From: Marinobacter arenosus
GTDB lineage: Bacteria > Pseudomonadota > Gammaproteobacteria > Pseudomonadales > Oleiphilaceae
DNA length: 64,000 bases
Direction of reading: 5' to 3'
Assembly: GCF_019264345.1 (NCBI RefSeq)
Contig: NZ_JAHVAO010000001.1
Span: forward strand, 1,922,001 to 1,986,000
Below the pieces are notes generated by a model. The model searched no databases, was not told the origin of the DNA, and saw only the letters and a program-made list of their open reading frames with translations. Of the stretch, positions 1,498 to 9,016 are shown one piece after another. The position numbers were made by a program, and so were the translations under genes. Every line of letters begins with the position of its first letter. Positions within the stretch are counted from its first letter, which is position 1.

Positions 1498-2895
1498 ATG
1501 ATGGAAAAGCGACCGCTCGTCTGGTTGTCAGCGGCACACACCAACACCACCGTGCGCAAGGCGCTGGGCTCTCGATGGAATCTGATCGATTTCAATCCGG
1601 AGAATCCGGTGCCTATTCAATTGTCACCCCCGGACGACGCCAAGGTGGGCGTCCTGGATCTCACCCGTATTCCACCCGACGACCTGCCCTGGCTGGATCA
1701 ATGGCTGGAAGCCCTGAGCCTCAGCTACTGGGTCGGGATTGTGCCCCATCGGCCTATTACCGGAACCCGGACGGCCCAGCTGATCACCCGGTATTGCTCC
1801 GATTTCCACACCCTGCCGGTCAATCACGAACGGCTGGATACGGTGCTGGGCCACCTCTGGGGCATGGCCACCATTCGCGAACCCGCCGTCGGCCTTCCCC
1901 GCGATGACTATCAGGCCCTGGTACTGGAGGGCACCTCCCAGGCCATTCGCCAGGTTCGCGGGTTGCTCCGGCGCTTCGCGGTAACCCCGGAGCCGGTTCT
2001 GATCACCGGCGAGAGTGGCACTGGCAAGGACGCCGCCGCCCGTTTCATTCACGAACACTCGACGCGGGCTTCCGGGCCCCTGGTAACGGTTAACTGTGCC
2101 GCCCTGCCCGATTCGCTGACCCAGAGCGAGCTATTCGGTTACGAGAAAGGAGCGTTTACCCACGCCCTCAGTGCCCATCCGGGCCGCCTGGAACTGGCGA
2201 ACGGCGGCTCCCTGATCCTGTCATCCATTGACGAGCTCAACCTCGAACAACAATCCGCGATCCTGCGCTTCCTGCAGGAAGGGCAGATTGAGCGCATTGG
2301 CGGCAGTGAACCCATCCCGATCGACAGTCGCATCATTACCACCTCGAGCCAGCCCCTGACCGAACTGGTCGAAACCGGGCAGTTTCGCAGTGACGTCTAC
2401 TACCGGCTGGGCGGACTGGAGGTCAAATTACCGGCCCTCAAAGACCGCCGCGAAGACATCCCGGCGCTGGCCGAAGCCCTCCTTGAAGCCTCCAACCGTG
2501 GCGGCAAACAGAAGCGGCTCAGCGAAGCGGCCATTCAGCGCCTGGTCAACCATTCCTGGCCTGGCAACTTCCGGGAACTGCAGAACCGGTTGCGACAGGG
2601 CCTACTCCTGTGCGACCGGGAGGTGATCGAACCGGCCGACTTGGGGCTGGAACCAACCGGCCCCGAAGGGGATGTGCCGGCCACCTCCAACCTGAGCCTG
2701 GAAGAATTCCGGGCCCGGGCTGACCGCCAGGCGCTGTCCTGCAGCCTGGCCCTGGCACACCACAATGTCTCCGCCGCTGCGCGGATCCTGAAGATATCAC
2801 GCGTTTCGTTTTACCGGCTTATGGACAAATACAACGCCGGTCCCCAGTCGGGTCATCACCGACAGGGCTCACACCACAAGGGAGATCCACCATGA
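1498..2895 (+). CDS. VpsR-like enhancer-binding-protein-family transcriptional regulator with degenerate Walker B
   Basis: 465 residues in three parts: a degenerate receiver-like domain (about 1-125, with only D53 as a plausible acceptor), an AAA+ domain (about 135-380) and a Fis-type helix-turn-helix (about 423-444). Walker A (GESGTGKD, 171-178) and the arginine-finger/sensor segments (RSDVYYRL, RREDIPAL) are intact. Where NtrC-type proteins have the Walker B Asp-Glu this protein has Ser242-Ser243 (LILSS). The sigma-54 contact loop reads GAFTHA (218-223) instead of GAFTGA, and the sensor I segment is TTSSQP. Such changes are expected to weaken ATP hydrolysis and sigma-54 remodelling. VpsR of Vibrio cholerae is a known relative that activates without sigma-54. 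The stop overlaps the start of the next gene by 4 bp, so it is co-transcribed with the barrel protein and is the natural candidate regulator of the facing secretion operon. Two consecutive ATGs (1498, 1501) follow GGAGG. Confidence 0.85.
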   Translation: MMEKRPLVWLSAAHTNTTVRKALGSRWNLIDFNPENPVPIQLSPPDDAKVGVLDLTRIPPDDLPWLDQWLEALSLSYWVGIVPHRPITGTRTAQLITRYCSDFHTLPVNHERLDTVLGHLWGMATIREPAVGLPRDDYQALVLEGTSQAIRQVRGLLRRFAVTPEPVLITGESGTGKDAAARFIHEHSTRASGPLVTVNCAALPDSLTQSELFGYEKGAFTHALSAHPGRLELANGGSLILSSIDELNLEQQSAILRFLQEGQIERIGGSEPIPIDSRIITTSSQPLTELVETGQFRSDVYYRLGGLEVKLPALKDRREDIPALAEALLEASNRGGKQKRLSEAAIQRLVNHSWPGNFRELQNRLRQGLLLCDREVIEPADLGLEPTGPEGDVPATSNLSLEEFRARADRQALSCSLALAHHNVSAAARILKISRVSFYRLMDKYNAGPQSGHHRQGSHHKGDPP

Positions 2896-3956
2896 GAAAA
2901 CCGCTACTCTTTCCGCTGTTCGCCAGCGCCTGCCTGATGCCCGCGACGGGGATTGCGCAAACGGACTCTGCCGGGGACGTCCCGGCATCCCCCGAAGAAG
3001 CTGAAGCGAAGAAAGAGCAGGTCACCGACATTGCCTCCATCACCTCCGACCGCGGAATCGTCACCCGGCCGGGGCGACTGACCATCGAACCGGCGTTTTC
3101 CCACGCCCACAGCAACGCCACCCGGGTCGCCATTGAGGGCTACACCGTGATTCCGGCCCTGCTTGTGGGCCTGATCAATATCTCCGAGATTCAACGGGAC
3201 ATCTTCGTTGGCGCCCTGACCTTCAAATACGGCTTCACCAGCCGGTTTGAAGCCGATGTCCGAGTGCCCTGGCTGAGCGTCAACGAGGATCTCAGGGAAC
3301 GTCAGGCCTTTGAGGGAACCCCCGTCGATACGCTTCGGGAGTCCTCGGGCGAAGGCCTCGGGGACGTCGAGCTGTCGGCGCGTTATCAGCTGAACGACGG
3401 CCTGGAAGGCTGGCCCTACGTGATCGGCGTGTTCCGGGTCAAGACGCCCACGGGGGAAGGGCCCTACGATGTTGACCAGCGGGTGGTGGAAGACAGCGAG
3501 GGTAACCCCATCGGGGTGGAACTGGAGGAGCGGCCCACCGGATCCGGATTCTGGTCCTTTGAGCCGGGGTTCTCGTTCATCTACCCGTCTGACCCGGCCG
3601 TTCTGTACGGCAGCCTCAGTTACGTCTGGACCATGAAGGAGGACCAGGGACCGGAAAACGGCGGTGAAGTCGACCCCGGGGACGTGGTGCGCTTCGGATT
3701 CGGCATGGGCTTCGCCTTCAACGAGCGGACCTCGTTCAGCCTGGGTTACGACCACTCCGTCATCCGCAAAACCAGCTTCGAGACCAACAGCGACCTGTTC
3801 GGGGCAAACTTTGACCGCATCCAGGTGGGTTCGCTGTCCTTCGGCCTGGCCCAGAGACTGTCAACCAACACCACCCTGAGCCTGACCGTGAACGTGGGGG
3901 TCACTGAAAACGCCCCCAACAGCGAGTTGACCCTGAAGCTGCCGATCACCCTCTGA
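2892..3956 (+). CDS. Outer-membrane beta-barrel protein, FapF/phenol-degradation-porin-like
   Basis: 354 residues. A signal peptide ends near residue 22 (ATGIAQ). A short charged helix follows (SPEEAEAKKEQ, about 32-42), then a long alternating-residue region typical of a 12-14-strand barrel (for example VRFGFGMGFAF and TTLSLTVNVGVT) with a terminal strand LTLKLPITL. The segment from TRPGRLTIEPAFSH to TSRFEADVRVPW resembles the start of the FapF barrel, the pore that exports Pseudomonas amyloid subunits, but the coiled-coil plug of true FapF is much longer. The gene starts inside the stop codon of the regulator (ATGA overlap) after GGGAGATCCACC, and converges on the operon at 3995-6161. From context I infer it is the export pore for those secreted proteins; the family also contains small-molecule porins. 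Confidence 0.7.
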   Translation: MRKPLLFPLFASACLMPATGIAQTDSAGDVPASPEEAEAKKEQVTDIASITSDRGIVTRPGRLTIEPAFSHAHSNATRVAIEGYTVIPALLVGLINISEIQRDIFVGALTFKYGFTSRFEADVRVPWLSVNEDLRERQAFEGTPVDTLRESSGEGLGDVELSARYQLNDGLEGWPYVIGVFRVKTPTGEGPYDVDQRVVEDSEGNPIGVELEERPTGSGFWSFEPGFSFIYPSDPAVLYGSLSYVWTMKEDQGPENGGEVDPGDVVRFGFGMGFAFNERTSFSLGYDHSVIRKTSFETNSDLFGANFDRIQVGSLSFGLAQRLSTNTTLSLTVNVGVTENAPNSELTLKLPITL

Positions 3957-3994
3957 ACGCCGCCGGCCGGGGCCCACCCTGGCGTCCAGGTCGC

Positions 3995-4477
3995 CTAGCG
4001 GCCAAGCATCTGTAACACGGGTTCACGCATGGCATCCGGCAGCCGGCTCAGACCGGCGCCGAGGTTATTCAGTTCGATGTTCAGTTGCCGGCTGTTCTGG
4101 ATCTCGGTGCCGTTCAGGTTGTTCTGAATGACCGTAATCCAGCCGCCGTCCTTCGATGCCGACGATATCAGTGCCTGGCCGCCGGCTTTACCCACGATGG
4201 TTTCCACCGTATGGGGCACGGCGCGTCCATTGGCCACCTGATTCAGGTTGGGAATGTTCAGGCGGTTGATGGCCAGGGTTTCTCCGTCAACGGACACCAC
4301 CTGCTCCAGCCCGATCCGGATTTCGAGATCGTCCAGCAGAAAACCACCCCGCAGGGACGCCAGCTCATCGTTGCTCAGCGCCTGAGCCGGGAAGATGGCA
4401 CCGCCGGTCGTGGGCGCTGCCAGCAAGGTCCCCGCAAACACCAGCGCGACGACGGCAAAGCCGTGTTGTTTGATCAT
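3995..4477 (-). CDS. Secreted small protein with double-glycine leader motif and TVIQN segment
   Basis: 160 residues, last gene of a four-gene minus-strand operon, 4 bp after the C39 peptidase gene. A hydrophobic signal sequence (about 8-28) is followed by LSNDELASLRGG (34-45). This matches the LSxxELxxIxGG leader of bacteriocin precursors, cut after the Gly-Gly by C39 peptidases. The rest contains LEIRIGLEQVVSVDG and a C-terminal segment with TVIQNNLNGTEIQNSRQLNI, which echoes the end of the 116-residue protein at 5188-5538. A ribosome site GGGAG lies about 10 bases upstream. I recognise no named family. I infer a secreted subunit, nucleator or chaperone of a surface fibre, processed by the neighbouring peptidase. 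Confidence 0.75.
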   Translation of the reverse strand: MIKQHGFAVVALVFAGTLLAAPTTGGAIFPAQALSNDELASLRGGFLLDDLEIRIGLEQVVSVDGETLAINRLNIPNLNQVANGRAVPHTVETIVGKAGGQALISSASKDGGWITVIQNNLNGTEIQNSRQLNIELNNLGAGLSRLPDAMREPVLQMLGR

Positions 4478-4481
4478 TGTT

Positions 4482-5174
4482 CTACCACTCCCTTGGATTT
4501 GGCCAATAAGGCAGAGTATGGCTCAGAGAGGGGCCGTCCGGGCCCCTGGACACGGGCGCGCGCACGTAGTGCGCCCAGTTGCCATCCCTCTCAAAGGTTT
4601 TTCGCCCCTGCGCAATGTGGCTGCGAATCATGAAGGCAGAGCCATCCCAGTAGTTTTCAAACTGTTCTCGTGGATACACTTTCAGGCCCCGTGCCGGGTC
4701 GCCAACAAACACCTCCCGCTCACTGATGCCCTTGATAATCACGAAGTGCCGGTACCCCTCCAGCGTCACAAGTGCGATCACCGGCAGGCGTACCTTCTCC
4801 CGGATGCCACTGAGCGGCAGCCGGAAACCGTCGGCCTGATAGCCTTCGGACTCCAGGTACCGTTTCATATCCAGCATGGAGAAGCCCTCACGGCGCACTT
4901 TATCCGGGTCGGCAAGAGCAAACATGCCGGTAAACACGTCTGCCTCGGTCACTTCATGCCCATAATGGAAAGACAGCAGTGAAGCCAGTGCCGCCGAACC
5001 GCAACTGAAGTCATACTGCTGTCGCATCACCGAACTGAATCGCTGTTCCTGGAAGCTTTCGACCTCCATCTCAAGCCCACCGCCCAAGCCCGGAATCATC
5101 ACCGATCCGGCAAACGCAGTGGGCCACAGCAGGGCAGCACCTGCGGCTACAGACACTAGCCTCAACATTGCCAT
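4482..5174 (-). CDS. Periplasmic C39-family cysteine peptidase (FapD-like)
   Basis: 230 residues with a signal peptide (about 1-22), so it acts in the periplasm and not as a domain of an ABC exporter. The catalytic elements are visible: Q52/Q53 and C58 in QQYDFSCGSAALASLL, H143 in YRHFVIIKG, and D159 in VGDPARG. This is the arrangement of FapD, the C39-type protein of Pseudomonas fap operons. AGGAGG six bases before the ATG supports the start at 5174. It sits between two small secreted-protein genes (13 bp and 4 bp gaps). One of these carries a textbook double-glycine cleavage site, so I infer that it trims those subunits. Peptidase activity itself is not proven by sequence. Confidence 0.85.
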   Translation of the reverse strand: MAMLRLVSVAAGAALLWPTAFAGSVMIPGLGGGLEMEVESFQEQRFSSVMRQQYDFSCGSAALASLLSFHYGHEVTEADVFTGMFALADPDKVRREGFSMLDMKRYLESEGYQADGFRLPLSGIREKVRLPVIALVTLEGYRHFVIIKGISEREVFVGDPARGLKVYPREQFENYWDGSAFMIRSHIAQGRKTFERDGNWAHYVRAPVSRGPDGPSLSHTLPYWPNPREW

Positions 5175-5187
5175 GGCCCACCTCCTG

Positions 5188-5538
5188 TCATCGGTTTATG
5201 AGAATATTTACCTGGGTGCTGTCCTGAATCACCACCTGGTTTCCGGTGTTCTGGATGACCGTGGCGATGCCGCTCATGTTGCCAAACGCCTGGTCAGAGA
5301 TCGTGTTGTCGCCGGTCACTGAGGACCCGGACAAGACATTTCCCGTAACCGTGGCATTTTGCTCGGCGTCATTGAGTTGCCATTGCAGGGGGATACCCTG
5401 CCGCCCGCTGGCGCCGTCAAGTTGGTCGGCACTCATTGGATCCAGTCCCAACCACTCCTCGGCGCCGGCCGTGGTGGCCGACCCCAGGACCATCAGCACC
5501 CAGACTGCCTTCAGCATCCATCTGACTGAGTCATTCAT
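5188..5538 (-). CDS. Secreted small protein with TVIQN motif, amyloid/adhesin-associated
   Basis: 116 residues. A signal peptide ends near residue 26 (TTAGA/EE). Next comes MSADQLDGASGRQG (35-48), which resembles the double-glycine leader of the 160-residue neighbour but has Gly-Arg in place of Gly-Gly. The C-terminal half is rich in N, T, G and V (NATVTGNVLSGSSVTGDNTI) and ends with GIATVIQNTGNQVVIQDST followed by QVNILINR. The IQ/VN beta-strand pattern and N/Q spacing recall minor subunits of curli- and Fap-type fibres. AGGAGG lies six bases before the ATG. It is 59 bp downstream of the repeat-protein gene and 13 bp upstream of the C39 peptidase gene. No specific family is recognised; a role as fibre nucleator or minor subunit is inference. 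Confidence 0.75.
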   Translation of the reverse strand: MNDSVRWMLKAVWVLMVLGSATTAGAEEWLGLDPMSADQLDGASGRQGIPLQWQLNDAEQNATVTGNVLSGSSVTGDNTISDQAFGNMSGIATVIQNTGNQVVIQDSTQVNILINR

Positions 5539-5597
5539 GACATGCCTCCTGGCAGGAAACAGGCCGGACCCCGAACCGGGGCCACAGCCATCTTCCC

Positions 5598-6161
5598 TCA
5601 GTTGCCACCTGCTGACAGGTTGGACTGAACGCTCACGTTGGCCTGGGTCACACTGCCAACGCCGGCGTTCTGGGCAAAGGCGCCCACGCCCGTGAAGTTG
5701 GCGGAGCCACCGCCAATCTCGTTGGAGGCACTGGCCATGGTGGAGTTACCGGCACCAGCCGCATCGCCGTAGGTGGCGGACACGTCGGATACCGAGCCCT
5801 CGAGCTCGCCCTCGTTCATGAACACGCTCAGGGACAGCTCGAGATCGGAATCAGTGCTGTTGTCGGAGTGGTCCGAGTTGTCCGACATGTCGTTGCCGCT
5901 GTTCGCAATCTTGAACGAATCCTTCACATCGACACTGTTGTCGGAATTATCGGAGTTGTCGGAGTTGTCATTGCCACTGTCGGAAATCTTGAACGAATCC
6001 GTGGCGGTGTTGCTGTTGTCTTGATTCGTGGCGGTCGAACCGTTGTTGGCGTTGGTGTTTGGATCTCCATTTCCACCCAGGGTTGGGTCGGCGATAGCCG
6101 CTCCGGACAGGCCCAGGCCAAGTGCAATGGCAGTCGCAAGCACGGTTTTGTTCATAGTCAT
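5598..6161 (-). CDS. Secreted D/N/S-repeat protein, candidate amyloid or adhesin subunit
   Basis: 187 residues from the ATG at 6161, chosen because AAAGGA lies nine bases upstream and a clean signal peptide follows (MTMNKT...GAAIADP, cleavage near 25). A longer frame from 6335 lacks both and overlaps the promoter. The mature protein has no Cys and very few aromatic residues. It contains two near-identical 22-residue repeats (55-76 and 81-102) of the form DSFKI-SGND-SDNSD-SDNS, then DLELSLSVFMNEGELEGS. The C-terminal G/A/N/S-rich region ends AFAQNAGVGSVTQANVSVQS. The acidic repeats could bind Ca2+ or stack in a beta-solenoid. It is first in the operon behind a sigma-54-type promoter. The role as main structural subunit is inferred from position, repeats and the C39 partner. 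Confidence 0.8.
   Translation of the reverse strand: MTMNKTVLATAIALGLGLSGAAIADPTLGGNGDPNTNANNGSTATNQDNSNTATDSFKISDSGNDNSDNSDNSDNSVDVKDSFKIANSGNDMSDNSDHSDNSTDSDLELSLSVFMNEGELEGSVSDVSATYGDAAGAGNSTMASASNEIGGGSANFTGVGAFAQNAGVGSVTQANVSVQSNLSAGGN
5856..5999 (-). repeat. Two 66-bp in-frame repeats encoding DSFKI...SDNS units
   Basis: Two tandem in-frame units, at 5934-5999 and 5856-5921, each encode a 22-residue unit beginning DSFKI and ending in an SDNS run; 12 bp encoding VDVK separate them. Inner SDN triplets form a microrepeat. Low complexity could allow slippage and length variation between strains. Confidence 0.8.
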
Positions 6162-6262
6162 GTCGTCAATTCCTTTGATTTGATGTTGTTGGTTTCCAGG
6201 GGATCCTTTCCCAAACCGATGACTATCGGAGACAGCAGGGTCCAGACCCGCCGGGGGGCCAA

Positions 6263-6278
6263 AGCGATTCCCGTGCCA
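6263..6278 (-). promoter_or_regulatory. Near-consensus sigma-54 (-24/-12) promoter
   Basis: On the minus strand TGGCACGGGAATCGCT matches the sigma-54 consensus TGGCACGNNNNTTGCW at every fixed position except one (T to C next to the -12 GC). The GG and GC doublets have the required 10-base separation. Transcription would begin near 6250, leaving a leader of about 90 bases before the repeat-protein ATG at 6161. Confidence 0.75.
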
Positions 6279-6367
6279 GCTTTTCCTGCACCCTCGGCAA
6301 AAGATTGATCTGATAGCCTTTTTTTTGGTTTCCACCCGAACGCACAGAGCGGATAAATCCCGGACAC

Positions 6368-6387
6368 CTGTTTCATTGGTGAAACAG
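6368..6387. promoter_or_regulatory. Perfect 8-4-8 palindrome, likely enhancer site for the sigma-54 promoter
   Basis: CTGTTTCA-TTGG-TGAAACAG is a perfect inverted repeat centred about 100 bp upstream of the -24 element. That is the usual distance for a bacterial enhancer-binding protein. Its size and symmetry fit a Fis-type HTH dimer such as the regulator at 1498-2895. I did not find a second copy elsewhere in the window by eye. Confidence 0.6.
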
Positions 6388-6639
6388 CTTGTCTATCGTC
6401 TTCAAGGACACTTGGAAGAATTCAGTGCTCGATTCATGAAGATAGGAATCTATCCCGGTGTTAAAAATCCAGAATGCCGGTGTCCAGATTCCGTCACACA
6501 TCTGTCGCCTAAATGTCGGCTGGCTCACAAACCGGTCATGAAATTCTGGTAATGTCAGGCATGTTACCGTTCTGCCACGGCAGGGACGCACAGACGGGGC
6601 CTGGCTCCGTATCGTTAAGCCATACAGTAAGGAAGGTTT

Positions 6640-7953
6640 ATGTCGACAGAGCTTTATCAGATCGTGTTTGCGGGACAGATTCTGGACGGATTTGACGAAC
6701 CGCAGGTGAAAGCCAATCTGAAAGATCTTTTCAACGCCACCGATGAACGCATTGAACGCCTGTTCGCCCCAACCACCGACGCACCGGCGATCAAGTCCAA
6801 TCTGAACCACGAAGAGGCGGCGATCTACCACAAGCGCCTGACCGCTGCCGGTGCCGACGTTCGGATTTCATCCCAGAACAGAGCGCCTGCCGCCCCGGCA
6901 AAGGCGGCCCCGGCACAACAGGAACCGGCCGGAACCGCGCCGGCCAATGACACGGATGAAGCCTCTGGCAACCGCAAGCGCGCTCCCCTGGAATTCACCG
7001 GGCGGGGCGGCGAGTACTTCGGCATCTGGATCGTCAATATCCTTCTGACCATCGTGACCCTGGGCATCTATTCGGCCTGGGCCACGGTTCGCAACAACCA
7101 GTATTTCTATGGCAACACACTTCTGGACGGCGCCAGCTTCCAGTATCTTGCCAGCCCGATCACCATCCTCAAGGGCCGGCTGATTGCACTCGCCGTCCTG
7201 GTTGCCTACGTGGCCCTGTCGGAACTGTTCGTCGAGGCGGCCATCGCCTTCGCCGTCGCTTTTTTGTTCCTGGTGCCCTGGATCATGATCCGTTCACTGC
7301 GTTTCAACGCCATCAACAGCGCCTACCGCAACATCCGGTTTGACTTCCAGGGCACCTACGGCCAGGCCTTCATGGTCGCCTTCGTATGGCCCCTGCTGAA
7401 CCTGCTGTGCCTGATGCTGCTGACGCCTCTGGTACTCAAGAAAACCCACCAGTTTGTCGCCAACGGCAGCCGTTACGGCACCACCGGCTTTGACCTGGCC
7501 GTGACGACCAAGGCGTATTACCTGCTGTTCGGCAAGGCCCTGTTGCTGGCACTCGGCTTCGGTGCCGGCGCTTACCTGAGCGCCCAGGCAAACATGCCGG
7601 TGCTGGCCGCCATCATTGGCGGTATCGGTTACCTGACGCTCTTCGGCTTCTTCATGGCCGGTGTGGCCAACCTGTTCCTGAACTCAACCGAGCTGGCCGA
7701 GCACCGCTTCGAGTCGAAACTGGGGCCGGCACAGATGGTCTGGATCTATCTGAGCAACAGTCTGCTGGTCGTCCTCACCCTTGGCCTCTTCACGCCCTGG
7801 GCCAAAGTTCGCATGGCGCGCTACCGCGCCGCCTGTACAACCATGCTGATTTCCGGTGATCTGGACCATTTCGTCGCCGCTGAGCAGAACCGCGCCAGCG
7901 CCCTGGGTCAGGAACTGGGAGATGCCTTTGATGTCGAATTCGCCGCTATCTGA
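6640..7953 (+). CDS. DUF898 (YjgN-like) multi-pass membrane protein
   Basis: 437 residues. A soluble N-terminal region (about 1-85) is followed by an A/P-rich linker (about 86-105) and then a polytopic membrane domain. Its signatures are the repeated DUF898 elements FTGRGGEYFGIWIVNILLT, TLGIYSAWATVRNNQYFYGN and a second LTLGLFTPWAKVRMARYRA near the C-terminus. The family function is unknown. The final 23 bp overlap the start of the M48 protease gene, implying translational coupling, so the two products may act together at the inner membrane. The N-terminal extension is longer than in E. coli YjgN and I do not recognise its fold. Confidence 0.85.
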   Translation: MSTELYQIVFAGQILDGFDEPQVKANLKDLFNATDERIERLFAPTTDAPAIKSNLNHEEAAIYHKRLTAAGADVRISSQNRAPAAPAKAAPAQQEPAGTAPANDTDEASGNRKRAPLEFTGRGGEYFGIWIVNILLTIVTLGIYSAWATVRNNQYFYGNTLLDGASFQYLASPITILKGRLIALAVLVAYVALSELFVEAAIAFAVAFLFLVPWIMIRSLRFNAINSAYRNIRFDFQGTYGQAFMVAFVWPLLNLLCLMLLTPLVLKKTHQFVANGSRYGTTGFDLAVTTKAYYLLFGKALLLALGFGAGAYLSAQANMPVLAAIIGGIGYLTLFGFFMAGVANLFLNSTELAEHRFESKLGPAQMVWIYLSNSLLVVLTLGLFTPWAKVRMARYRAACTTMLISGDLDHFVAAEQNRASALGQELGDAFDVEFAAI

Positions 7954-9016
7954 TCTGGCCATTGAAGGGCAGTTCTATTCCGGCGACAATTCCCACCGAC
8001 AGGACGCCCTGCTGCGTTCTGTCGGTGGTGAGCTGATCCTGGCCACCGCATTCCACCAACGGCACCTGTCGCTGCAGGATCTCACCATCTCGCCACGGGT
8101 GGGCAACACCCCGCGATACCTTCACCTGCCGGATGACGGCGTCTTCGAAACCAGCGATAACGATGGCGTGGACCAGCTTGGCCGGAGGGCGTCAACGGGA
8201 CGCATCGCGCGCCTGCTGCATCGGCTGGAGAACCACCTGGGGCTGATCCTGACGGCGGTGGTGGTCACCGTCGCGGTCACCGCGTTTGCCTTTGTCTACG
8301 GCGTTCCCTGGACCGCCAAGGCCATCGCCTATGCCCTGCCTGACAGCATCGCCGAGCAGGCCGGGGAGTCGACGCTGGCTTCCCTGGACAGCACCTGGCT
8401 CGACCCTTCCGAACTCTCCAACGATCGCCAGCAGTCGCTCCAACGCCACTTCGAGCCCTTCCTGACACCGGTTGGCGGGCAGGAACTGACGGTCCTGTTC
8501 CGCTCGGCGCCGGCGATCGGAGCCAATGCCCTGGCCTTGCCCGACGGCACCTTGATCTTCACCGATGAGCTGGTCGAGCTGGCAGAAAATGACGACGAAC
8601 TGGTGGCCATCCTTGCCCACGAAATCGGCCATGTGGAACACCGTCATGGCATGCAGGGCATGGTCCAGTCGTCGCTGACCTTCTGGCTGATCGTGATGAT
8701 GACCGGCGACCTGTCGGCCTTTTCCGACACCACGGTGATGGTGCCGGCGGTACTGATGAGCCTTTCCTACTCACGCAAGATGGAACGGCAGGCCGACCAG
8801 TACGCACTGGAAACCCTGCAGCGGCATGACCTGGATCCGGGGCACTTTGCCAACATCATGGCCCGACTGGCGGAACTGGAGGATGTCAGTCAGGGTGACG
8901 CGGACGACGAAGGTGAGGAAGAGAAGAGTCACTGGAGCAGGCTTGGCGACCTGTTGTCGAGCCACCCGGTCACCGAGGAGCGCATTCAGCGCTTTCGCGA
9001 GGCAGCGTTCCGGTAA
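7931..9016 (+). CDS. M48-family membrane-anchored zinc metalloprotease
   Basis: 361 residues from the ATG at 7931; a longer frame from 7856 would lie fully inside the upstream gene. An N-terminal region of about 100 residues begins DLAIEGQFYSGDN and is followed by one membrane helix (about 103-123). The catalytic domain carries the HEXXH motif as HEIGH (230-234) within AILAHEIGHVEHRH, and the downstream MERQADQYAL supplies the third zinc ligand Glu. The arrangement resembles HtpX/BepA-type proteases. It overlaps the DUF898 gene, suggesting a membrane-protein quality-control or processing pair. A strong hairpin terminator follows. Confidence 0.88.
   Translation: MSNSPLSDLAIEGQFYSGDNSHRQDALLRSVGGELILATAFHQRHLSLQDLTISPRVGNTPRYLHLPDDGVFETSDNDGVDQLGRRASTGRIARLLHRLENHLGLILTAVVVTVAVTAFAFVYGVPWTAKAIAYALPDSIAEQAGESTLASLDSTWLDPSELSNDRQQSLQRHFEPFLTPVGGQELTVLFRSAPAIGANALALPDGTLIFTDELVELAENDDELVAILAHEIGHVEHRHGMQGMVQSSLTFWLIVMMTGDLSAFSDTTVMVPAVLMSLSYSRKMERQADQYALETLQRHDLDPGHFANIMARLAELEDVSQGDADDEGEEEKSHWSRLGDLLSSHPVTEERIQRFREAAFR

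What the first reader, a model, noticed from the sequence alone, without database searches (positions are those of the whole stretch)
1498..6390. Fap-like but rearranged secretion locus: VpsR-like regulator, barrel, C39 peptidase and three secreted repeat/TVIQN proteins
Four minus-strand genes (repeat protein, TVIQN protein, C39 peptidase, TVIQN protein) face a two-gene plus-strand operon (regulator, FapF-like barrel). The functional pieces equal those of Pseudomonas fap (subunits, FapD peptidase, FapF pore), but gene order, subunit sequence and regulator differ. Acidic SDNS repeats replace the FapB/FapC repeats. This looks like a distinct surface-fibre or adhesin system.
Basis: partly seen in the sequence, partly recalled or inferred. 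Interest (0 to 1): 0.8.

Follow-up and report, generated by a model that had tools for sequence, protein, structure and literature searches.

The report
Divergent Fap-type fibre secretion locus
This Marinobacter gene cluster looks like a distant cousin of the Pseudomonas system that secretes amyloid-like fibres for biofilms, and its protein sequences suggest which proteins the system's unusual periplasmic cutting enzyme processes, an open question in the known system.

Summary
In detail: six genes at the stated place. Profile comparison links the 160-aa protein to FapE and the 116-aa protein to the FapB repeat. The barrel is FapF by sequence and fold but lacks FapF's coiled coil. The regulator groups with regulators of canonical-type fap loci. 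The SDNS protein has a D/N/S linker and one weak C-terminal repeat.

C39 and barrel trees separate these loci (Marinobacter, Cellvibrionaceae, Photobacterium, Lysobacteraceae, Betaproteobacteria, others) from a canonical-type set. In 145 genomes (own plus relatives) the C39, 160-aa and 116-aa genes share the same 53, always adjacent. Arg-Gly-Gly is the only invariant stretch in the FapE-like family, inside a textbook double-glycine leader; canonical-type FapE has RG[R/K] there. A sigma54 promoter precedes the repeat gene.

Best reading: a c-di-GMP/RpoN-controlled surface-fibre or matrix system whose periplasmic C39 enzyme removes leaders from the FapE- and FapB-like proteins to license export. 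Cleavage, fibres and control are untested. New variant of a known kind.

The parts
1498..2895 (+). BrfA/VpsR-type sigma54 enhancer-binding regulator (465 aa)
   Evidence: Pfam VpsR E 3.9e-7, Sigma54_activat E 8e-56; groups with regulators of canonical-type fap loci, 96/88*, apart from 11 of the 12 other own-genome sigma54 activators tested; regulator present in 66 of 80 sources
2892..3956 (+). FapF-like outer-membrane barrel (354 aa) without the N-terminal coiled coil
   Evidence: PDB FapF E 7.5e-35; the top 18 Foldseek hits of model mb40f176269cd are FapF chains, best E 1.5e-20; PTG motif present; arm before the barrel 54 residues, against 117-177 in 18 of 37 aligned rows
3995..4477 (-). FapE-like secreted protein (160 aa) with double-glycine leader LSNDELASLRGG (residues 34-45) and C-terminal TVIQN stretch
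   Evidence: Profile match to canonical-type FapE, prob 94.9, E 4.4e-8; only invariant columns in 39 relatives are R43 G44 G45
4482..5174 (-). FapD-like C39 cysteine peptidase (230 aa) with a Sec-type signal by eye
   Evidence: Pfam C39 E 1.4e-19; NCBIfam FapD 151 bits, cut-off 330; Q52, C58, H143, D159 invariant in 35 aligned rows
5188..5538 (-). FapB-like mini-subunit (116 aa): leader MSADQLDGASGR (residues 35-46) and one Fap-type repeat with TVIQNTGNQVVIQDSTQVNI
   Evidence: Profile match to canonical-type FapB, prob 90.6, E 1.3e-6; one repeat in 80 of 80 relatives; leader form G[GRK] in 73 of 80
5598..6161 (-). SDNS repeat protein (187 aa): signal peptide, acidic D/N/S linker, one weak C-terminal repeat; positional equivalent of FapC
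   Evidence: C-terminus shared with the 116-aa family, prob 95.4; mature part has 24 D/E against 3 K/R; 78-bp and 9-bp DNA repeats
6263..6278 (-). sigma54 -24/-12 promoter TGGCACGGGAATCGCT (11 of 12 consensus bases) upstream of the repeat gene
   Evidence: 58 of 84 repeat genes have a site with 10 or more of 12 matches, against 1.6% of shuffles; rpoN present in the genome

Best explanation
The locus encodes a surface-fibre or adhesive-matrix system that is a divergent relative of Pseudomonas Fap. RpoN plus the BrfA/VpsR-type regulator, probably responding to c-di-GMP, switch on the repeat-116-C39-160 operon from a -24/-12 promoter (promoter shown by sequence; control inferred). The three subunits and the C39 enzyme cross the inner membrane by Sec (inferred from signal-like N-termini). 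In the periplasm the C39 enzyme cuts the FapE-like 160-aa protein after its invariant RGG, and the FapB-like 116-aa protein after its GR/GG. This removes a leader that served as a targeting or holding signal and licenses export through the FapF-type barrel (inferred). Outside, the Fap-type repeats at the C-termini of the 116-, 160- and SDNS proteins would stack, while the acidic D/N/S linker of the SDNS protein would form a hydrated, variable brush (inferred).
For: Homology of parts: barrel = FapF; C39 = FapD family; 160 aa = FapE and 116 aa = FapB repeat, with a 0.6% control; regulator grouped with those of canonical-type fap loci. Unit: C39 orthologue, 160-aa and 116-aa genes lie in the same 53 of 145 genomes, 54 of 54 places within 2.5 kb. 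Leader: RGG is the only invariant stretch in 39 diverse 160-aa proteins, RGG in 78 and KGG in 1 of 79; the C39 active-site motif Q..[DN].SCG is present in 82 of 82 C39 proteins. Spacing fits LSxxELxx[hydrophobic]xGG, the double-glycine leader consensus (recalled). The canonical-type FapE set has RG[RK] at that place, 9 of 9. Promoter. Published: FapD C38A abolishes FapC secretion, and no peptides from the FapE N-terminus are seen by mass spectrometry; the authors already favoured FapE as substrate (PMC5557850, passages read).
Against: No cleavage, fibre, amyloid staining or expression datum for this locus was found. The SDNS protein does not match the FapC profile beyond the signal peptide, matches FapB only weakly (prob 5.8, E 0.0066), and a repeat-only profile finds a repeat in 59 of 84 such proteins even at a lax threshold. 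The FapF coiled coil, reported vital for secretion in Pseudomonas, is missing. NCBIfam cut-offs for FapD, FapE and FapF are not met. The 116-aa leader ends in GR, not GG, in the window. The 160-aa profile misses 2 of 9 canonical-type FapE proteins. The AlphaFold model of the 116-aa protein is low confidence and shows no beta fold for the repeat. A canonical-type regulator's best match in this genome is another sigma54 activator; the locus regulator is second. c-di-GMP binding by this regulator is not shown.
Confidence: 0.75

Rival explanations
1. It is simply an ordinary Fap operon with sequence drift; nothing distinguishes it mechanistically.
For: Most roles have a fap counterpart, in nearly the same order, with a BrfA-type regulator. 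One new-type locus, L061 (Acetobacteraceae MAG), has a 252-aa protein with three FapB-like repeats besides its single-repeat 116-aa relative, so the two types may intergrade. I raised this rival from 0.15 to 0.18 for that reason.
Against: Both the C39 and the barrel tree put all new-type rows on one side of a supported branch from the canonical-type set (98/92* and 98/97*), L061 included. One repeat in 80 of 80 116-aa relatives against two or three in 9 of 9 canonical-type FapB; RGG instead of RG[RK] in FapE; no coiled coil in the Marinobacter barrel. One Halomonas contig (L056) carries a C39 of each type about 6 kb apart.
Confidence: 0.18
2. A peptide or bacteriocin export system: C39 plus double-glycine leaders release a small secreted peptide, with the barrel as exit pore.
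For: Double-glycine leaders and C39 peptidases are hallmarks of peptide exporters (PMC6363468, abstract start seen in search listing only).
Against: The C39 protein is free-standing and none of the seven proteins scanned is an ABC transporter; substrates are about 100-390 aa with their own signal-like N-termini; the closest relatives are FapD, FapE, FapB and FapF; long SDNS repeat proteins do not fit a bacteriocin.
Confidence: 0.05
3. The barrel is a solute porin (COG4313/MetA-pathway type) that happens to sit beside secreted proteins.
For: Pfam names it Phenol_MetA_deg (E 2.1e-8), and COG4313 4rl8 is the next fold after FapF.
Against: FapF is closer by about nine orders of magnitude in Foldseek E-value and is the only PDB sequence match at E<=1. 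A barrel homologue accompanies the C39 gene in 78 of 80 sources.
Confidence: 0.03

Closest known systems
Fap (functional amyloid of Pseudomonas), fapABCDEF + brfA
   Same: FapD-type C39 enzyme, FapE homologue, FapB-type repeat, FapF barrel, RpoN/BrfA-type regulator next door, subunits-D-E order
   Different: One repeat in the FapB-like protein instead of two or three; SDNS linker protein in the FapC position; RGG instead of RG[RK] leader in FapE; barrel gene inverted and, in Marinobacter, without coiled coil; separate branch for C39 and barrel
Fil putative pilus system (FilB/FilC)
   Same: C39 peptidase plus FapF-like barrel (FilB 109 bits, FilC 60 bits)
   Different: Scores are lower than for FapD/FapF; the Fil-like pair of this genome (L003) sits elsewhere, with a FadL-like protein and a MalT/LuxR-like regulator nearby by eye, and no 160- or 116-aa relative was found there
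Double-glycine leader / C39 peptidase-containing ABC exporters (PCAT, ComA)
   Same: C39 family; PCAT C39 domain E 6.4e-9; leader spacing LSxxELxxxxGG (consensus recalled)
   Different: No ABC transporter; enzyme and substrates have Sec-type signals, so cutting would occur in the periplasm
Curli (CsgA/CsgB, CsgG)
   Same: Q/N-rich short beta repeats, surface fibre logic (recalled)
   Different: No Csg family among the Pfam matches of the locus; secretion pore differs

Membership tests
Fap system | FapF-type 12-stranded secretion barrel | tested here: met
   PDB E 7.5e-35; top 18 Foldseek hits are FapF; strand number not counted as such
Fap system | FapF periplasmic coiled coil | tested here: not met
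   Arm before the barrel is 54 residues in the window protein, 45-78 in 18 other rows and 117-177 in 18 of 37 rows; by eye most of the long arms hold a heptad-like stretch. No coiled-coil predictor was run
Fap system | Periplasmic C39 peptidase FapD with catalytic Cys/His/Asp | tested here: met
   NCBIfam FapD is the best family, 151 bits, under its cut-off of 330; catalytic residues invariant in 35 rows. Periplasmic location inferred
Fap system | FapE | tested here: met
   Profile-profile prob 94.9, E 4.4e-8; NCBIfam FapE matches 5 of 39 members at E<=0.01 but not the window protein (E 0.026)
Fap system | FapB/FapC with (usually three) Fap repeats | tested here: not met
   116-aa protein: one FapB-type repeat. 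SDNS protein: at most one weak repeat, no match to the FapC profile beyond the signal peptide. In relatives one locus, L061, does have a three-repeat protein
Fap system | fapABCDEF gene order | tested here: inconclusive
   Subunit-subunit-D-E kept, F inverted, no FapA recognised
Fap system | RpoN-dependent promoter and BrfA-type regulator | tested here: met
   Promoter; regulator tree; rpoN. Best-hit test not met
Fap system | Amyloid fibres on the cell surface | not testable with these tools
   No wet data
Fil putative pilus system | FilB/FilC as best-scoring models | tested here: not met
   FapD 151 vs FilB 109 bits; FapF 152 vs FilC 60 bits
Bacteriocin/peptide C39-ABC exporter | C39 domain fused to or beside an ABC transporter | tested here: not met
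   Free-standing C39, and no ABC transporter among the seven proteins scanned

The most novel reading that the evidence does not exclude
Fap-type systems use a two-step address: a Sec signal followed by a double-glycine-type leader on FapE and on a small FapB-like protein, removed in the periplasm by the free C39 peptidase to open or license the FapF pore. This locus belongs to a whole sister branch of Fap that builds a different material: single-repeat sticky ends joined to long, species-variable low-complexity brushes (acidic SDNS in Marinobacter, glycine-rich in many Betaproteobacteria).
Probability: 0.5. Interest if true: 0.75.

Novelty: new variant of a known kind. Interest (0 to 1): 0.6.

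Why it matters
What FapD cuts was left open in the Fap papers I looked into, with FapE the favoured candidate (PMC5557850, PMC6173800). A related family in which the FapE homologue carries a textbook double-glycine leader, whose RGG is its only invariant stretch, turns that question into one protein and one bond to test. It also suggests that the fap machine can carry very different cargo, that the FapF coiled coil reported as vital in Pseudomonas is absent in natural relatives, and that C39-plus-barrel loci noted before outside canonical Fap can be given subunits. For Marinobacter it marks a probable biofilm-matrix locus among genes named hypothetical.

Tried and rejected
Solute-porin reading: rejected on FapF sequence and fold matches. 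Fil-system reading: lower model scores. SDNS protein as a plain FapC: not supported beyond the signal peptide. A simple orthology claim for the regulator by best hit failed, so a tree was built. The 116-aa profile against the PDB gave three chance-level matches, E 0.064 to 1.5. AlphaFold of the 116-aa protein gave no usable repeat fold (pLDDT 63). NCBIfam scan of the 116-aa family: 0 of 39 members matched anything at E<=0.01. Literature searches (open-licence PMC papers only, capped lists) showed no listed title describing this system in Marinobacter or the leader processing of FapE; subscription papers are not covered, and the BrfA paper cited by PMC13101488 was not seen. Rows left out when alignments were made from the selection: 1 of 40 for the 160-aa (L064) and 116-aa (L057) proteins, 2 of 39 barrels, 6 of 41 C39, 19 of 42 repeat proteins.
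Full report
What is there. Six genes in two convergent units. Plus strand: regulator 1498-2895 and barrel 2892-3956. Minus strand: SDNS repeat protein 5598-6161, 116-aa protein 5188-5538, C39 peptidase 4482-5174, 160-aa protein 3995-4477. Gaps within the minus unit are 59, 13 and 4 bp, which suggests one transcript. The window lies in a 4.1-Mb genome; the nearest relatives of its C39, barrel and regulator are Marinobacter.

Parts by homology. The barrel matches FapF in the PDB at E 7.5e-35 and nothing else at E<=1. Its AlphaFold model (pLDDT 77.9) has FapF chains as the first 18 Foldseek hits, best E 1.5e-20, then COG4313 at 1.8e-11. The C39 protein scores best with NCBIfam FapD (151 bits) and then FilB (109); both are under curated cut-offs. 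The regulator has a VpsR domain and a sigma54 AAA domain. The three other proteins match no Pfam family at E<=1. A search with the 160-aa family found 155 proteins, 120 of them listed; the names shown are hypothetical or uncharacterized, except one labelled DUF4197, and none has a Pfam domain.

Neighbourhood. A scan for the C39 protein in species genomes matched 150 stretches, of which 110 encode relatives; the best 80 were kept, as 79 distinct loci. With iterated profiles at E<=1e-4 over these 79 loci plus the window (80 sources), a barrel is present in 78, the regulator in 66, a repeat protein in 75 and the 116-aa protein in 79. By best assignment the 160-aa protein is in 78: L042 is degraded and L058 ends at the C39 gene. 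The profiles of the three subunits cross-match in 135 ORFs, a sign of a shared repeat. In 145 genomes (the window's own and relatives), C39 orthologues (E<=1.3e-55; the next C39 is at 3e-31), 160-aa and 116-aa genes occur in exactly the same 53 genomes, at 54 places each, all within 2.5 kb of each other. All 53 are in the window's genus; the other 92 genomes have no 160- or 116-aa match.

Relation to Fap. Searching 229 genomes of the class with the NCBIfam FapE model found 9 with a match at E<=0.001, none over the cut-off and none in this genome. These 9 loci also have FapD and FapF homologues; the B-C-D-E-F order was read in L121, L123 and L126, FapA not being identified with certainty. I use them as the canonical-type set. 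A regulator homologue lies in 8 of the 9 stretches, one of them a fragment at a stretch end. Among all their ORFs of 60 aa or more, the 160-aa profile finds 7 of 9 FapE proteins (E 4e-6 to 0.035; other ORFs at 0.25 or worse), and the 116-aa profile finds 9 of 9 FapB proteins (E 5e-7 to 0.0045), at two or three repeats each, and two FapE. Profile-profile: 160 aa versus FapE prob 94.9, E 4.4e-8; 116 aa versus FapB prob 90.6, E 1.3e-6; SDNS protein versus 116 aa prob 95.4, E 1.7e-8; control 116 aa versus C39 prob 0.6. Against: SDNS protein versus FapB only prob 5.8, E 0.0066, and versus FapC only the signal peptide.

Repeat number. With a repeat-only profile, the 116-aa family has one repeat in 80 of 80 (E<=0.01), and canonical-type FapB two or three in 9 of 9 (lax threshold). 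Repeat proteins show one in 57 of 84, none in 25 and two in 1 at the lax threshold; one, in L061, has three. L061 is therefore an intermediate, with a three-repeat FapB-like protein inside the new group, and weakens a sharp divide.

Order and regulator. The order repeat-116-C39-160 corresponds to subunit-subunit-D-E of fap, and the barrel (F) is inverted beside the regulator. In P. fluorescens PF07 the RpoN-dependent regulator gene brfA is the reverse gene just downstream of fapF (PMC9207406, passages), and BrfA senses c-di-GMP (PMC13101488, passages). Separation of fapF was reported in 4 of 16 genera (PMC3792158; abstract, first part of the results and first part of the discussion read). In the regulator tree, 27 rows (21 from these loci, 6 of 7 canonical-type) form a group at 96/88*, and 11 of 12 other own-genome sigma54 activators form another at 96/92*. 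Best hit was not met: a canonical-type regulator matches another activator of this genome first (2.9e-83) and the locus regulator second (6.3e-80).

A separate branch. In the C39 tree, 40 new-type rows lie on one side of a branch (98/92*) from 10 canonical-type ones; in the barrel tree, 39 against 9 (98/97*). Roots are not inferred. The tenth canonical-type C39 is a second one on the Halomonas faecis contig L056, about 6 kb from the new-type gene, so both kinds can live side by side. New-type rows come from, among others, Marinobacteraceae, Cellvibrionaceae, Vibrionaceae, Lysobacteraceae, Zoogloeaceae, Nitrosomonadaceae, Comamonadaceae, Ectothiorhodospiraceae, Acetobacteraceae and a MAG filed under Myxococcota. 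Colocalised fapD and fapF homologues in five further phyla were noted before (PMC6173800; abstract and two sections read), so the enzyme-pore pair outside canonical Fap is known; the subunits, leader and regulator described here were not in the passages I read.

The leader. In 39 diverse 160-aa proteins the only invariant columns are R43, G44 and G45. In 79 members the triplet is RGG in 78 and KGG in 1 (the L075 row was misread by the scan in 48 and settled in 96). In the canonical-type FapE set it is RGR in 7 and RGK in 2 of 9. The preceding residues fit LSxxELxx[hydrophobic]xGG, the double-glycine leader consensus (recalled). The 116-aa family has the same frame ending G[GRK] in 73 of 80 (GR in the window). 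On my 10-point motif score, 71 of 79 160-aa, 59 of 80 116-aa and 9 of 9 FapE proteins reach 9 or more, against 4 of 82 C39, 0 of 78 barrel and 0 of 84 repeat proteins; the score was made after seeing the motif. The AlphaFold model of the 116-aa protein puts a short helix at residues 37-43, just before G45-R46 (low overall confidence). Q52, C58, H143 and D159 of the C39 protein are invariant in 35 rows, and Q..[DN].SCG is found in 82 of 82. The 2017 FapF paper (PMC5557850, passages) says that Fap proteins lack canonical C39 sites, that FapD C38A abolishes secretion and that the FapE N-terminus is not seen by mass spectrometry. It favours FapE as the target, with FapF as another possibility, and leaves the target open. 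The present family supplies a canonical site in the FapE position.

Regulation. A -24/-12 site, TGGCACGGGAATCGCT at 6263-6278 minus, precedes the repeat gene. Of 84 repeat genes 58 have a site with at least 10 of 12 consensus bases, against 1.6% of composition shuffles; regulator genes 13 of 67, other genes 1-3 of 78-82. Outside Marinobacter and its nearest kin the site is patchy. The genome has one rpoN. The best site found before the window's regulator gene has 7 of 12 bases, which recalls PF07, where fapF does not rise with fapA-E (PMC9207406).

Differences that may matter for mechanism. The window barrel has 54 residues before the conserved barrel start; of 37 aligned rows 18 have 117-177 residues there, most with a heptad-like stretch by eye, while Marinobacter, Cellvibrionaceae and Photobacterium rows have 47-78. 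The coiled coil reported as vital for FapC secretion (PMC6173800) is therefore missing in this lineage. The SDNS protein has 24 acidic and 3 basic residues after the signal peptide. In relatives the linker varies from SDNS to glycine-rich stretches while the C-terminus stays similar (by eye), which fits a sticky end plus a variable brush (inference).

Verdict. Homology to Fap: about 0.95. A secreted surface fibre or matrix: about 0.75. C39 cutting of the 160-aa protein after RGG: about 0.8, and of the 116-aa protein after GR: about 0.6. c-di-GMP control: about 0.6. New variant of a known kind.

Noticed in passing
L003 7038-8939 (G000:C1, about 795-797 kb): Second C39 + FapF-like barrel pair in the same genome, with a FadL-like protein and a MalT/LuxR-like regulator nearby (names by eye); C39 relatives of this kind occur in many genomes of the genus. 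Looks Fil-like; its cargo was not identified.
   Followed up: partly
L022 6675-13164 (also two C39 places in G014:C11): The repeat-116-C39-160 block is duplicated in tandem in a Marinobacter species, with one barrel and one regulator in L022.
   Followed up: no
L056 7495-15570 (Halomonas faecis): A new-type locus and a canonical-type C39 gene lie about 6 kb apart on one contig.
   Followed up: partly
L061 1802-2557 (Acetobacteraceae MAG): A 252-aa protein with three FapB-like repeats in a new-type locus, a possible intermediate between the two types.
   Followed up: partly
L042 (Marinobacter changyiensis; G006 similar): A degraded copy: short repeat, 116-aa, C39 and barrel ORFs, no full 160-aa ORF, full-length regulator.
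   Followed up: no
window 5601-6161, minus: Conserved GG a few residues after the signal peptide of the repeat protein (ADPTLGGNGDPNTNAN in the window, QGGDGDPNTNA in relatives), without the LSxxEL part of a leader; could be a second kind of processing or recognition site.
   Followed up: no
window 6640-9016, plus: DUF898 membrane protein with an N-terminal extension (Pfam E 5.5e-105) next to the locus, followed by an ORF 7856-9016 with an HEIGH motif (by eye, metallopeptidase-like); unrelated as far as seen.
   Followed up: no
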